Source: Myxococcota bacterium
GTDB taxonomy: Bacteria; Myxococcota_A; Polyangia; Polyangiales; Houyiibacteriaceae
Direction of reading: 5' to 3'
Length of the DNA: 45,938 nt
Assembly: GCA_028284955.1 (NCBI GenBank)
Contig: JANQQS010000223.1
Location: 1-45,938, forward strand
Within the stretch, counting starts at the first letter, position 1. Each line of letters begins with the position of its first letter. Made by a program: the position numbers and the translations under genes. Of this stretch, positions 41,444-45,832 are shown in pieces. The notes under the pieces are model-generated. The model did not search any database and was not told where the DNA came from. It saw only the letters and a list, made by a program, of their open reading frames with translations.

Positions 41444-43561
41444 ATGCTGCGGTTCGGTCGATTTCGTGAAGGGCGCGTGGCGACAGCCGCGTTGGGCATC
41501 GCTGCGTCGGGTATCGTCGCGTCGGGCTCCATTGGGTGCGGGGATGACGATGCCTCGGGATCTCGCGACGGCGGCGTTGACGGCGGCGCTGTAGCGGATG
41601 CAGGGGATATCCGAGATGCTTCGACCGACGCCGGGTCACCGGTTGACCTAAACGTCGCGCTGCAGACGAACGGGCTGGTATTCCGAACGCTTTTTTCGGT
41701 GACGGGTTCGGCGGATGGGCTTGACGGATCGGGGGTGGCGAGCACAGAGCCGCCCCAAAGCGCAATCTACACCTCACCAAATCGCGGCCCTGCGGAAGTG
41801 CCGGGAGGAAACGAAGTCGTCGCGCGCGCCGACGATCTCGGCCTCGCGTCGACAGACGATTTGGATGCGCTGTCCACGCTTCACCAACCGAACAGCTTTT
41901 CGCCCTACTACTTTTCGGTGTTGGATGTCCCAGCCCAAGACGAAGGGTTGCCAGGAACCGGTGTCCGCGAGGAATCTGACGAAGGCGAAGACCCCGGAGA
42001 CATCTTTCAATCGGCCGGTTTCGGCGTCAAGAGCGCTCCCGGACGAAATCATGTCTACACCGACGAAGTTCGCATCGGCCTTCAGCCCGCGACCACTGGA
42101 GGCACGCCTCTCGACAATCTCAACGCGCTCGATTTCGCGGGTGATGTATCGGTTGCCCGGGTGTTCTTCTCCGTTGCGCGAGGGGCGCAGGGTGCGCCCG
42201 GCAGCGCAGTGGCCGGCGTCGACGAGGATCAACGGCCGTGCACGCTATTTGAATCCATGCTCGATGGAAGCAATCGCGTGGTGTTCACGTGCGACGAGCT
42301 GGGCCTCGTGCCCGGTGACGATATCGACGGCGTAGTCGTCCGGGGGCAAACGGAAGCGGGCGTGGTGCTGTTTAGCGTGGATGACTCGTCGAGCGGCAAA
42401 GTTGGTTCCGCGGTACTCGGAGAACAAAGCGGAGAGGCGCATGAAGCGGACGTGTTCCGCTCCATCGGGGACGGGACCAACACCCTGCAGCTCGAGGAAG
42501 TCGCCCTGGGGCTCCAGGATCAAACCGTTCAAGACGAAGTCGATGCGCTCGCGATCTTGGATCTAACGCCGCTCGGCTACTTCACGATTTTGCCGCCGCC
42601 GCGAAGGGAACCGCCACCCTATGGCGACCCTCCGCCAGGCTCCGACCCGGGGGATCGCGAGTCACTCCTGCCGCTTTGGAAAGCGGCGCTGCTTACGACC
42701 CGACCGGAGGTCATCAGCTATTCACCCACCGAAACGGTGACCCATCCGTGCGGGCACACCGACTCACCATGCCCAAACTTCAGCGTCGACACCGCAACCG
42801 TTCCGTCAGCGCCGCTCCGGCCCACCGGAACCATCGGCCTCGTCACCCCCATCGGCTGTGAAACACTCTTGGGCCTCTGCGGACCAAACGGTGTGCTTTC
42901 AAACCCTCACGCGGAGCAGATCGACGGCGTGCAAGTTTCAGAATATGCGCACTACCAGGTCGATTACTGCGAGGCTGGCGGAGAGCCGCAAGTCTTTGTC
43001 ACGGTCAATATCACCGAGGCCCCGCGAACCGCTCAGCCCACCACCAAATTCGAAACGACAACCTGTTTACGCGCGCGAAGCGGCTTCTACAATGCAGCGG
43101 CCTCCGGATTTGCCTTCGATCTCGCGAATGGCTGTTCGACGCTGGTCAACACCATCCAACCCAACACCGACGACGACGATGATTTCTACGGCGTCGAAAT
43201 CACCAGCGGCGGGGGCGGAGGAAACCCAACCAGCTTCAATCGCATTCAGGCTCCCGCATGCAGCGTGAGCGCGGGCAACTACCTGATCAGCATCGTCGGC
43301 GCTCGCGGATTGCGGGATCAATCACCTGCCGAGCGGATCGATCCCGTCGACCTCGATCAGGCAGTCGAATACACGATCACCTCGTTTGTCGCCCCCGTTT
43401 CCGACCCCTTCGGCGTCGACACCGGCGTCTACGAGCTCGCGTCGGCGCCCAAAATCGACGGCGCCGAGCGGCGATTCTACCAAACTACGCTGGCGTGCGA
43501 CGCGCCGAACTACGCATGCGACGATATTCCCGATACGCTCCTCGACGATGACGACTTTTGA
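41444..43561 (+). CDS. Large acidic lipoprotein of unknown function
   Basis: 705 aa from ATG 41444. Signal region with basic start (MLRFGRFREGR), hydrophobic part and lipobox SIGC, followed by an Asp/Ser/Gly linker (CGDDDASGSRDGGVDGG). The rest is beta-rich with internal similarity: segments ending in LGL and VDAL recur (ADDLGLASTDDLDALS, EVRIGLQPATTGGTPLDNLNALD, DELGLVPGDDIDGVV, EVALGLQDQTVQDEVDALAIL), suggesting four repeated modules of about 90-110 residues, followed by a Pro-rich linker and a Cys-containing C-terminal domain. The last residues are acidic (DIPDTLLDDDDF). The stop shares TTGA with the proposed start of the carboxylase-like gene. Confidence 0.7.
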   Translation: MLRFGRFREGRVATAALGIAASGIVASGSIGCGDDDASGSRDGGVDGGAVADAGDIRDASTDAGSPVDLNVALQTNGLVFRTLFSVTGSADGLDGSGVASTEPPQSAIYTSPNRGPAEVPGGNEVVARADDLGLASTDDLDALSTLHQPNSFSPYYFSVLDVPAQDEGLPGTGVREESDEGEDPGDIFQSAGFGVKSAPGRNHVYTDEVRIGLQPATTGGTPLDNLNALDFAGDVSVARVFFSVARGAQGAPGSAVAGVDEDQRPCTLFESMLDGSNRVVFTCDELGLVPGDDIDGVVVRGQTEAGVVLFSVDDSSSGKVGSAVLGEQSGEAHEADVFRSIGDGTNTLQLEEVALGLQDQTVQDEVDALAILDLTPLGYFTILPPPRREPPPYGDPPPGSDPGDRESLLPLWKAALLTTRPEVISYSPTETVTHPCGHTDSPCPNFSVDTATVPSAPLRPTGTIGLVTPIGCETLLGLCGPNGVLSNPHAEQIDGVQVSEYAHYQVDYCEAGGEPQVFVTVNITEAPRTAQPTTKFETTTCLRARSGFYNAAASGFAFDLANGCSTLVNTIQPNTDDDDDFYGVEITSGGGGGNPTSFNRIQAPACSVSAGNYLISIVGARGLRDQSPAERIDPVDLDQAVEYTITSFVAPVSDPFGVDTGVYELASAPKIDGAERRFYQTTLACDAPNYACDDIPDTLLDDDDF

Positions 43562-44952
43562 GGACAAGAACGACTGAGAACCAATCCGCCTCGAGCGACC
43601 AGCGAATCGAAACCGCACTCTTCGCTCCGGTCGACATCGCTTCACTGGTCGTTTTTCGCGTCTCGTTCGGCTTCCTTCTCGCTCAGAGCGCGTGGACACA
43701 TCTGAAAGACGGTCGAGTTTATACACTGTTCGTCGAGCCCACCGTTCACTTTCACTACTTCGGTTTCAGCTGGATCAAGCCGCTCTCGCACGCCGGAATG
43801 AGCTTGCTCTTCGCTGCAATCGTTGCGCTCGGCATCGCTGTGGCAGTGGGCGCATTCTATCGATGCAGTGCCGCACTGCTGTGCCTCGCTCACGTGTACG
43901 TCTTTCTTCTCGACCAAGCCCGTTACCTGAACCACGAGTATCTGATTTGTTTGCTTGCGTTTCTTATGACGTTCATTCCCGCCCACCGCGCGATGTCGCT
44001 CGACGCTCGCTGGCGACCGAAGTTGCAGCGCGACGATATTCCTCAATGGGCGCTCGGACTCCTCCGTACGCAAATCGGGTTGGTTTATTTCTTTGCTGGC
44101 GTCGCGAAGATCAATCCCGACTGGCTGAGCGGACAACCGCTGACGATGTGGCTACAAAGCCGATCCGGAGTTCCCGTGGTGGGGCCATGGCTCGCGATGC
44201 CTTCGGCCGGGCTCGCGTTCAGCTACGCGGGGCTTGTCCTCGACCTGTTCGCAGTGCCGCTGCTCATGATGGGTCGCACGCGCGCGTGGATATTCGCCAC
44301 GCTGGTGCTGTTTCACGGCATCAACGCCGCGCTCTTTCGCATTGGCGTGTTTCCTTGGCTCATGATCGCAGCAACGACGCTCTTTCTCCCGCCCGGATGG
44401 CCGCGTCGCGTGCGTTTGTTCTTTTGCGCTCATACAACGCCGCACGCGGCTAACAACCCCAGCGTCATCGCCCCGCAAACGACGCGGCGCCAGCGGCTAT
44501 GGATGCTCGCCATCAGTGCGTATGTGACCCTTCAAATCGCGTTGCCGCTTCGTCATTTCTTCTATCCTGGCCCTGTCCACTGGACCGAAGAAGGCCACAA
44601 ATACGCGTGGCACATGAAACTCAGGCGAAAACGAGGTCGTATCCATTACCGAGTACGCGATCCAGGCTCCGAACGACAGTGGATCGTCAATCCCGGCGCC
44701 GAGCTCCATGACTGGCAATTGAGAAAACTCGCGACGCGCCCTGAACTCATTCTGCAACACGCCCATCGCATCGCGAGGCGCTTTTCGGCTCGCGGCGTGG
44801 AGGACGTGGAAGTCTACGCCGAAAGCCACGCTTCGCTCAACGGACGACGTCCGCAGCGATTGGTGGCATCAGACGTCGATCTCGCAAAGACTAAGGATTC
44901 ATTCTCCCCGGCCCCCTGGATCGTCCCCTTCAAACCGGCGCCGCTGCCCTAG
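43558..44952 (+). CDS. Vitamin K-dependent gamma-carboxylase homologue (HTTM domain)
   Basis: 464 aa. An N-terminal horizontally-transferred-transmembrane (HTTM) domain with several membrane helices (30-285) and a C-terminal globular part. It follows the animal gamma-glutamyl carboxylase closely at key places: YFFAGVAKINPDW (178-189) aligns with human AGVKKLDADW, keeping the catalytic Lys218 equivalent as Lys184; LNHEYLICLLAFL; WTEEGHKYAWHMKLRRKRG (342-360) matches the human WTEEGHRFSW segment; and the C-terminal VYAESHASLNGRRPQRL resembles the human counterpart. The proposed start is TTG overlapping the upstream stop. Human GGCX is longer (758 aa). The substrate in bacteria is unknown; flanking acidic lipoproteins are candidates (inference). 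Confidence 0.8.
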   Translation: MRTRTTENQSASSDQRIETALFAPVDIASLVVFRVSFGFLLAQSAWTHLKDGRVYTLFVEPTVHFHYFGFSWIKPLSHAGMSLLFAAIVALGIAVAVGAFYRCSAALLCLAHVYVFLLDQARYLNHEYLICLLAFLMTFIPAHRAMSLDARWRPKLQRDDIPQWALGLLRTQIGLVYFFAGVAKINPDWLSGQPLTMWLQSRSGVPVVGPWLAMPSAGLAFSYAGLVLDLFAVPLLMMGRTRAWIFATLVLFHGINAALFRIGVFPWLMIAATTLFLPPGWPRRVRLFFCAHTTPHAANNPSVIAPQTTRRQRLWMLAISAYVTLQIALPLRHFFYPGPVHWTEEGHKYAWHMKLRRKRGRIHYRVRDPGSERQWIVNPGAELHDWQLRKLATRPELILQHAHRIARRFSARGVEDVEVYAESHASLNGRRPQRLVASDVDLAKTKDSFSPAPWIVPFKPAPLP

Positions 44953-45116
44953 GAGGCTGGTGTCAAACGCGGACCGAGGGTCGCGCAGCGCCGGCAGGCC
45001 AGTCGTCGCATCCGCGAACCGAGGAAATGCCGAAGCATTTTCGAGCGTGAGGGGATGGCGGCGAATGGCCTTGCCGCGGCACGCAAGCCGACGGGAGCGT
45101 TTGACACCAGCCTCCT
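44951..45116 (+). repeat. 166-nt imperfect giant hairpin with perfect 20-bp ends
   Basis: 44951-44970 and 45097-45116 are exact reverse complements. Between them the arms continue to pair imperfectly (GCAGGCCAG... opposite a similar GCAAGGCCA...). At the exact centre AAATGC-CGAA-GCATTT (45025-45040) forms the closing stem and tetraloop. The element starts over the TAG stop (44950-44952) of the carboxylase gene. No flanking target-site duplication is visible. Could be a MITE-like element or a structured RNA or terminator. The remaining 89 bp before the next gene hold only its ribosome-binding site. Confidence 0.9.
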
Positions 45117-45205
45117 GGTGCTCAGCCCCATGTGCGTCAACCGACCGCGAGATATTTGCTGCATCGCGCAGTTTGACGGTACACGACACGCGAGGAGGGA
45201 ACGAC

Positions 45206-45832
45206 ATGACACATCGACGAATCGCGACCCTGGGGGCACTGGCCGCTGCACTGGTCTTTGGAATGGGTTGCGGCGACGACGACTCATCCAGCAGCGACGC
45301 CGGCACTGGCCCGTCCGATTCCGGAACCACCACCATCGATTCCAGTACAACGACCAACGACTCCGGAACCACCACCAGCGACGCAGGAAGCGGCAGCGAC
45401 TTCACGGTCCCATCAACCGTTCAAATGGCGATGAGCATCGGAGCACCCAGCCGGAGCGCGGCGCTCTGCCAAAACTTTGTCTTCGGCGGTACGATTGGCT
45501 TCTCCCTCCAGCAAAGCGGATTCAGCAGCTGCCCAGGCGGCGCCGCGTACGTTAGCTTCGTACAGCGCACGGATCTGGACACCAACCCCTACCAGGTATT
45601 CGCCGGCGAATTTATTCCGAGCGTCGATTCCGCCAGCGACGACTACACCGCTGTCGACATCATGAGCACGACCACTGGCACCCTCACTCAGGGAACCGGA
45701 GAAACCGCCGACCAAATCACCGAAATCCCGCCTGCCACCGACGTCACCATCACCACCGGCGAGTTTTCAAACCTCACCTTCCGCTTTCAAGACGACGAAG
45801 TCACAGTGACCGCGTTCGAACGCTCAAACTAG
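45206..45832 (+). CDS. Small lipoprotein with Asp/Ser/Thr-rich linker
   Basis: 208 aa from ATG 45206 with a strong ribosome-binding site (AGGAGGG). Signal MTHRRIATLGALAAALVFGMGC ends in a lipobox Cys at 22. A long Asp/Ser/Thr/Gly linker (23-65) with repeated DSGTTT-like units precedes a beta-rich domain of about 135 residues (STVQMAMSIGAPSRSAALCQNF to FRFQDDEVTVTAFERSN). Not recognised. It lies downstream of the carboxylase-like gene and is acidic, like the lipoprotein upstream of it. The stop codon overlaps the 98-bp terminal repeat by three bases. Confidence 0.75.
   Translation: MTHRRIATLGALAAALVFGMGCGDDDSSSSDAGTGPSDSGTTTIDSSTTTNDSGTTTSDAGSGSDFTVPSTVQMAMSIGAPSRSAALCQNFVFGGTIGFSLQQSGFSSCPGGAAYVSFVQRTDLDTNPYQVFAGEFIPSVDSASDDYTAVDIMSTTTGTLTQGTGETADQITEIPPATDVTITTGEFSNLTFRFQDDEVTVTAFERSN

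What the first reader, a model, noticed from the sequence alone, without database searches (positions are those of the whole stretch)
41444..45832. Vitamin-K-carboxylase homologue between two acidic lipoproteins
The protein keeps the catalytic Lys equivalent and the WTEEG and C-terminal segments of animal GGCX, which is more than most HTTM proteins retain. It is coupled to an upstream 705-aa lipoprotein and followed by a small lipoprotein. A bacterial system in which a quinone-driven membrane enzyme modifies cell-surface lipoproteins would be new; animal enzymes turn Glu into gamma-carboxy-Glu for calcium binding.
Basis: partly seen in the sequence, partly recalled or inferred. Interest (0 to 1): 0.8.

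Follow-up and report, generated by a model that had tools for sequence, protein, structure and literature searches.

The report
Vitamin-K-carboxylase-like enzyme in a myxobacterium relative
The bacterium carries a genuine, apparently intact relative of the animal enzyme that uses vitamin K to carboxylate clotting proteins, but such enzymes turn out to be common in bacteria, and the two lipoproteins beside this copy are a separate conserved pair with no sign of being its targets.

Summary
The enzyme is real. Window 43558-44952 encodes a 464-aa protein with HTTM and VKGC-lumenal domains; its model (pLDDT 94.5) matches only GGCX in the PDB (Z 35.4, 445 residues), ending at human residue ~514. N125, H126, K184, W189, F252, F260, F265, W342 and W351 are kept; the Glu-site segment differs (L394 to G, Y395 to H, M402 to K, K217 to A), and the second propeptide lobe and arch are absent.

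The upstream lipoprotein has one homologue in 379 phylum genomes, 14 bp from a homologue of the downstream lipoprotein, with no carboxylase nearby: the lipoproteins are a pair of their own. Both are Asp-rich, not Glu-rich. A ~168-bp repeat (about 40 copies) separates enzyme and small lipoprotein.

Bacterial VKGCs are common (49 of 116 relatives) and split in two. One class lies directly downstream of an imelysin lipoprotein, usually before a TonB receptor (89 of 129 VKGCs). The window enzyme belongs to the other (motif WTEEGHxFxWHMKLRxK; 0 of 24 with imelysin). MenD and a VKOR-DsbA fusion exist in the genome.

Best reading: a menaquinol/O2-driven strong-base enzyme at the periplasmic face, substrate unknown.

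The parts
41444..43561 (+). LP1, 705-aa Asp-rich lipoprotein with weak ~75-aa internal repeats (FSV...G..G...DIF.S...LGL..DDLDAL)
   Evidence: ORF; no Pfam/NCBIfam match; internal repeats; one homologue in the phylum, G150:C29, 48%; single-sequence fold uninformative, pLDDT 31
43558..44952 (+). VKGC/GGCX-fold membrane enzyme, 464 aa, TTG start overlapping LP1 stop by 4 bp
43621..44400 (+). HTTM domain (transmembrane core)
   Evidence: PF05090, E 4.8e-85
43930..43935 (+). N125-H126, equivalents of human N159-H160 (Glu coordination / H160)
   Evidence: alignment, invariant in 129 bacterial VKGCs; human roles PMC12589487
44107..44109 (+). K184, equivalent of catalytic base K218 of human GGCX
   Evidence: invariant in 129 bacterial VKGCs
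44491..44934 (+). VKGC lumenal domain (expected in the periplasm)
   Evidence: PF22777, E 7.8e-45
44581..44631 (+). W342-K358, WTEEGHKYAWHMKLRRK, the segment that aligns with the human Glu-binding segment 390-406; marks the partner-less class
   Evidence: human 393-404 as glutamate site PMC5343777
44951..45117 (.). ~168-bp dispersed element with terminal inverted repeats (about 40 copies in the genome), between VKGC and LP2
45206..45832 (+). LP2, 208-aa small Thr/Ser/Asp-rich lipoprotein
   Evidence: homologues next to the LP1 homologue in G150

Best explanation
The gene encodes a bacterial member of the VKGC (GGCX-fold) family belonging to a partner-less class found in Myxococcota, Planctomycetota, Verrucomicrobiota, Nitrospinota, Chloroflexota and Acidobacteriota. 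Shown: full fold, quinone pocket and catalytic base conserved; MenD present; an altered Glu-site segment and no human-type second propeptide lobe. Inferred: K184 deprotonates menaquinol bound in the membrane, the quinol reacts with O2 to form a strong base (ending as menaquinone epoxide), and that base deprotonates a carboxylate-bearing substrate at the periplasmic face, probably followed by CO2 addition. The substrate is unknown; LP1 is co-transcribed with the gene but belongs to a lipoprotein pair (LP1-LP2) that exists elsewhere without it.
For: Fold: only GGCX chains are significant (16 of 16 with E<=0.001; TM 0.69-0.85; VIA Z 23-35, up to 449 residues). Residues: N159, H160, K218, W223, G259, F286, F299 and W399 identical in all 129 bacterial VKGCs aligned, F294 in 128, including the window; roles from the human structures (PMC12589487). 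Class: 24 of 24 HMKLR-motif members, spread over several phyla, have no imelysin beside them, while 86 of 96 RVM-EK-motif members have one directly upstream. Quinone supply: MenD 355 bits, over cut-off. Lipoprotein pair without VKGC: L293.
Against: No activity is shown for any bacterial member here. Y395 (Glu coordination) is H347, L394 is G346 and K217 is A183, so Glu carboxylation may be lost, as I recall was reported for the Leptospira homologue. The 4-bp overlap with LP1 could mean a functional tie. Aerobic habit, CO2 use and quinone type were not tested beyond MenD.
Confidence: 0.5

Rival explanations
1. Epoxidase or oxygenase without carboxylation: the enzyme uses menaquinol and O2 to make epoxide or a base for another purpose (quinone turnover, O2 removal, hydroxylation or deprotonation of a small molecule).
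For: Quinone-side residues are invariant whereas the Glu-site segment and second propeptide lobe are altered or absent. In four related genomes without VKGC the same slot after imelysin holds a fatty-acid-hydroxylase-family gene, another O2-using membrane enzyme family. The Leptospira homologue was, from memory (Rishavy 2005), an epoxidase without detectable carboxylase.
Against: N159 and H160, which hold the Glu side chain and serve carboxylation in human GGCX, are invariant in all 129; the altered segment is itself strongly conserved within the class, which suggests a bound substrate.
Confidence: 0.3
2. One reading: the enzyme carboxylates Glu residues of LP1 and LP2 at the cell surface.
For: LP1 and the enzyme overlap by 4 bp, so they are very likely co-translated; LP1 and LP2 are a real pair; G150, which has the LP1-LP2 pair, also encodes a VKGC of the same motif class elsewhere in its genome.
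Against: LP1 has one homologue in 379 phylum genomes, there with no VKGC within the 16-kb stretch. Glu is 5.1% in LP1 and 2.9% in LP2 against 6.2% in window proteins; in the conserved part of LP1 only 9 of 23 Glu are kept against 51% identity overall. A dispersed repeat lies between enzyme and LP2. The motif class has no constant neighbour.
Confidence: 0.12
3. The enzyme has no catalytic role now: a decaying or repurposed HTTM protein.
For: It is divergent (best relatives about 45-46%) and differs from family consensus at several positions.
Against: All core residues kept, intact 464-aa frame, high-confidence fold, and its odd motif is shared by distant bacteria.
Confidence: 0.05

Closest known systems
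Animal gamma-glutamyl carboxylase GGCX (e.g. PDB 9wfc, 9bux, 9l6q)
   Same: Fold over human residues 42-514, catalytic Lys, N159/H160, quinone-pocket aromatics, W390 and W399.
   Different: 28-29% identity; lacks everything after ~514 (second propeptide-binding lobe, arch); L394 to G, Y395 to H, M402 to K, K217 to A, R406 to K; no C99-C450 disulfide; no known Gla substrate.
Bacterial VKGC of imelysin operons (e.g. Riemerella RAYM_09784, Fur-regulated with TonB receptor and imelysin; PMC5609570)
   Same: Same two domains and invariant residues; 34-46% identity among those sampled; the window's own genome has two of this class (C35, C170).
   Different: Different class motif (RVM-type with EK against HMKLRxK); the window gene has no imelysin, di-haem peroxidase or TonB receptor beside it.
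Leptospira VKGC homologue (noted in PMC4555120; biochemistry from memory)
   Same: A bacterial VKGC with a diverged Glu-binding region (from memory).
HTTM-only membrane proteins
   Same: Transmembrane core and the Lys.
   Different: No lumenal domain and no NH pair.

Membership tests
VKGC family (HTTM + VKGC lumenal domain) | Both Pfam domains over cut-off in one protein | tested here: met
   284.6 and 151.2 bits against 27.7
VKGC family (HTTM + VKGC lumenal domain) | Catalytic Lys, NH pair and quinone-pocket aromatics | tested here: met
   K184, N125, H126, W189, F252, F260, F265
VKGC family (HTTM + VKGC lumenal domain) | GGCX fold | tested here: met
   Foldseek TM up to 0.85, VIA Z 35.4 over 445 residues
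Animal-type GGCX | Glu-binding segment 393-404 with Y395 and L394 | tested here: not met
   H347 and G346; W399 kept as W351
Animal-type GGCX | Second propeptide-binding lobe and arch (after human residue ~514) | tested here: not met
   Protein ends at the equivalent of ~514
Animal-type GGCX | Gla formation on a secreted protein | not testable with these tools
   needs mass spectrometry
Imelysin-VKGC-TonB operon | Imelysin lipoprotein directly upstream | tested here: not met
   Upstream gene LP1 has no PF09375 match; 0 of 24 in its motif class
LP1-VKGC-LP2 trio as a conserved system | Trio kept together in other genomes | tested here: not met
   One LP1 homologue in 379 genomes, without VKGC beside it
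Vitamin K cycle | Reduced menaquinone supply and a VKOR homologue in the genome | tested here: met
   MenD over cut-off; VKOR-DsbA-like fusion over cut-off, unlinked; epoxide reduction by it not tested

The most novel reading that the evidence does not exclude
Bacterial VKGCs are working menaquinol-driven carboxylases of envelope proteins: one class modifies metal-handling imelysin lipoproteins in Fur-type iron-uptake operons, and the class of the window enzyme modifies other periplasmic or surface proteins, which could include LP1/LP2. This would be a vitamin-K-dependent protein modification native to bacteria and possibly older than the animal one.
Probability: 0.2. Interest if true: 0.85.

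Novelty: new member of a known kind. Interest (0 to 1): 0.45.

Why it matters
Vitamin-K carboxylation is usually told as an animal invention with a rare transfer to Leptospira. The sample here shows the enzyme family widely in bacteria, in two classes, the larger one tied to imelysin lipoproteins and TonB receptors. That gives a defined, testable substrate candidate for the larger class, and it suggests (on a long branch) that the animal enzyme sits outside it, on the side of the partner-less class to which the window enzyme belongs.

Tried and rejected
1) LP1 as a conserved partner: searched 116 relatives and 379 phylum genomes, plus plasmids; one homologue, not beside VKGC. 2) Glu-rich substrate regions in LP1/LP2: no enrichment. 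3) VKGC-specific conserved Glu in linked imelysins: the only well-conserved Glu is equally conserved in imelysins of genomes without VKGC. 4) A constant neighbour for the HMKLR class: none found (TamB, DsbD-type protein, PLP decarboxylase, molybdopterin oxidoreductase and others). 5) Folding LP1 from one sequence: uninformative. 6) Futalosine menaquinone pathway: not found; MenD was. 7) Rishavy 2005 and other Leptospira VKGC biochemistry: not held; quoted from memory only.

Full report
What is there. The window is contig C89 of a 6.07-Mb draft genome whose relatives are Myxococcota (named close kin of the protein include Nannocystis, Sandaracinaceae and Corallococcus). At 43558-44952 lies a 464-aa ORF with HTTM (PF05090, 284.6 bits) and VKGC_lumenal_dom (PF22777, 151.2 bits). 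phmmer aligns residues 11-458 with human GGCX at E 4e-45. The start is a TTG that overlaps the stop codon of the upstream 705-aa lipoprotein ORF (LP1, 41444-43561) as TTGA, so the two are almost certainly one transcript and probably translationally coupled. A second lipoprotein (LP2) begins at ATG 45206, 253 bp after the enzyme; the gap holds a ~168-bp element with terminal inverted repeats of which about 40 copies, mostly at 89-97% identity, occur in the draft genome, many at contig ends.

Is it a true VKGC? Yes by fold and by residues. An AlphaFold2 model from the window protein and 63 fetched relatives has mean pLDDT 94.5. All 16 significant PDB matches are GGCX; the structural alignment with 9wfc covers 445 residues at Z 35.4 and ends at human residue 514. 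Against human GGCX and 129 bacterial VKGCs, the residues that the human structures assign to the base and the quinone pocket (K218, H160, W223, G259, F286, F294, F299; PMC12589487) are identical in all bacteria (F294 in 128), including the window: K184, H126, W189, G225, F252, F260, F265. N159 (N125) and W399 (W351) are also invariant. K217, which couples the membrane and propeptide-binding parts in the human enzyme, is Ala. In the segment reported to bind Glu (human 393-404, PMC5343777) the window differs: L394 is G346, Y395 is H347, M402 is K354. Everything after human ~514, including the second propeptide-binding lobe and the arch, is missing. So the epoxidation half looks intact and the animal-style substrate-recognition half does not. 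The Lys alone is not diagnostic: three HTTM-only proteins of the same genome also have it.

Two classes of bacterial VKGC. PF22777 occurs in 49 of 116 related genomes, and with the window protein as query 95 of 379 phylum genomes match; the genome scan gave relatives in Planctomycetota, Bacteroidota, Nitrospinota, Chloroflexota, Verrucomicrobiota and Acidobacteriota. Of 84 genes immediately upstream that were scanned, 73 were imelysin (PF09375); the gene before that was mostly a di-haem peroxidase (DHOR) or DUF4856 protein, and a TonB-dependent-receptor-sized gene usually follows. One published Fur study lists the same TonB receptor-VKGC-imelysin genes as co-regulated in Riemerella (PMC5609570); the imelysin structure paper describes the imelysin-peroxidase operons without mentioning a carboxylase (PMC3143127). 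Sorting 129 VKGCs by the segment equivalent to human 390-406 gave 24 with the HMKLR-type motif, none with an imelysin beside it, and 89 others with imelysin directly upstream, 86 of these among 96 RVM-EK-type members. The window enzyme is in the first class. In trees, the imelysin class is set apart with 95-96% SH-aLRT; the window enzyme and human GGCX both fall outside it, but the human branch is very long and the order inside the other group is unresolved. The window's genome has two further VKGCs (C35, C170) that fall in the imelysin class, and imelysin genes on other contigs.

Are LP1 and LP2 its substrates? The evidence leans against it. LP1 has no Pfam or NCBIfam match and no homologue in 116 relatives. 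In 379 phylum genomes there is one, G150:C29, 48% identical over residues 30-435. There it lies 14 bp from a homologue of LP2 (34% over 148 aa, E 3e-20), with a second LP2 homologue (37%) nearby, and no VKGC within the 16-kb stretch. So LP1 and LP2 are a genuine pair with each other, not with the enzyme. G150 does encode a VKGC of the HMKLR class on another contig, so action at a distance is not excluded. Glu makes up 5.1% of LP1 and 2.9% of LP2 against 6.2% in other window proteins; the acidity is Asp. In the alignable part of LP1 and its homologue, 9 of 23 Glu are kept (39%) against 51% identity overall and 61% for Asp. The partners of other HMKLR-class enzymes differ from genome to genome.

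Cofactors. MenD is present over its cut-off, so menaquinone, a vitamin K, is probably made; the futalosine route was not found. One VKOR homologue is present as a fusion with a DsbA-like part, unlinked to the VKGC genes. Whether it reduces an epoxide is unknown; a review holds that tested bacterial VKORs reduce vitamin K but not its epoxide (PMC6116193).

Mechanism. Shown: fold, residues, gene order, presence of MenD. Inferred: menaquinol is deprotonated by K184, reacts with O2, and the resulting strong base acts on a carboxylate substrate held near N125/H126 at the periplasmic face. Which substrate, and whether CO2 is added, is open; the class-specific but well-conserved motif argues for a real substrate that is not the animal kind. 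From memory, the Leptospira homologue showed epoxidase but no carboxylase activity, which keeps the epoxidase-only rival strong.

Caveats. The genome is a draft, and the comparison set was found by peptide patterns and by phylum, so the counts describe the sample. Gene calls in the neighbourhoods came from a simple script; misplaced starts and a few missed or merged genes occur. The two-class split rests on one segment plus neighbourhoods plus a quick tree. No activity of any kind is shown.

Noticed in passing
L123-L162, L043-L122, L224-L243: Bacterial VKGCs of the larger class sit directly downstream of an imelysin lipoprotein (73 of 84 upstream genes scanned; 89 of 129 VKGCs in the wider set), with a di-haem peroxidase or DUF4856 gene before it and a TonB receptor after it.
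   Followed up: yes
L252:7127-8095, L254:3635-4684, L256:7118-8200, L258:4379-5380: In four related genomes without VKGC, the slot after imelysin holds a fatty-acid-hydroxylase-family (PF04116) gene, another O2-using membrane enzyme family.
   Followed up: partly
C-termini of imelysins upstream of VKGC (e.g. L139:5799-6989): VKGC-linked imelysins end exactly with ...DNDGD or ...GDND (two Asp 98-99% conserved); most imelysins of genomes without VKGC share it, while first-of-tandem imelysins do not. Meaning unknown.
   Followed up: partly
window 44951-45117; also C35:24475-24649 and C170:6799-6899 (L008): ~168-bp dispersed inverted-repeat (MITE-like) element, about 40 copies, often at contig ends; copies lie close to all three VKGC loci of this genome, directly upstream of the C35 one.
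   Followed up: partly
L293:5970-12129: LP1 homologue with two LP2 homologues in a genome outside the window's class: an unnamed conserved lipoprotein pair.
   Followed up: partly
L007:10168-10923: A fibro-slime/PA14-domain lipoprotein follows the C35 VKGC.
   Followed up: no
L008:2857-5556: The TonB receptor after the C170 VKGC has a long DADADA... stretch near its N-terminus.
   Followed up: no
L086:7947-11071: Two VKGC genes in tandem in a Planctomycetaceae MAG.
   Followed up: no
L226, L228: Two of the best relatives of the window enzyme lie directly downstream of TamB genes.
   Followed up: no
tree: Human GGCX falls with the partner-less class (near Nitrospina and uncultured Deltaproteobacteria), not with the imelysin class; long branch, so unsure.
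   Followed up: partly
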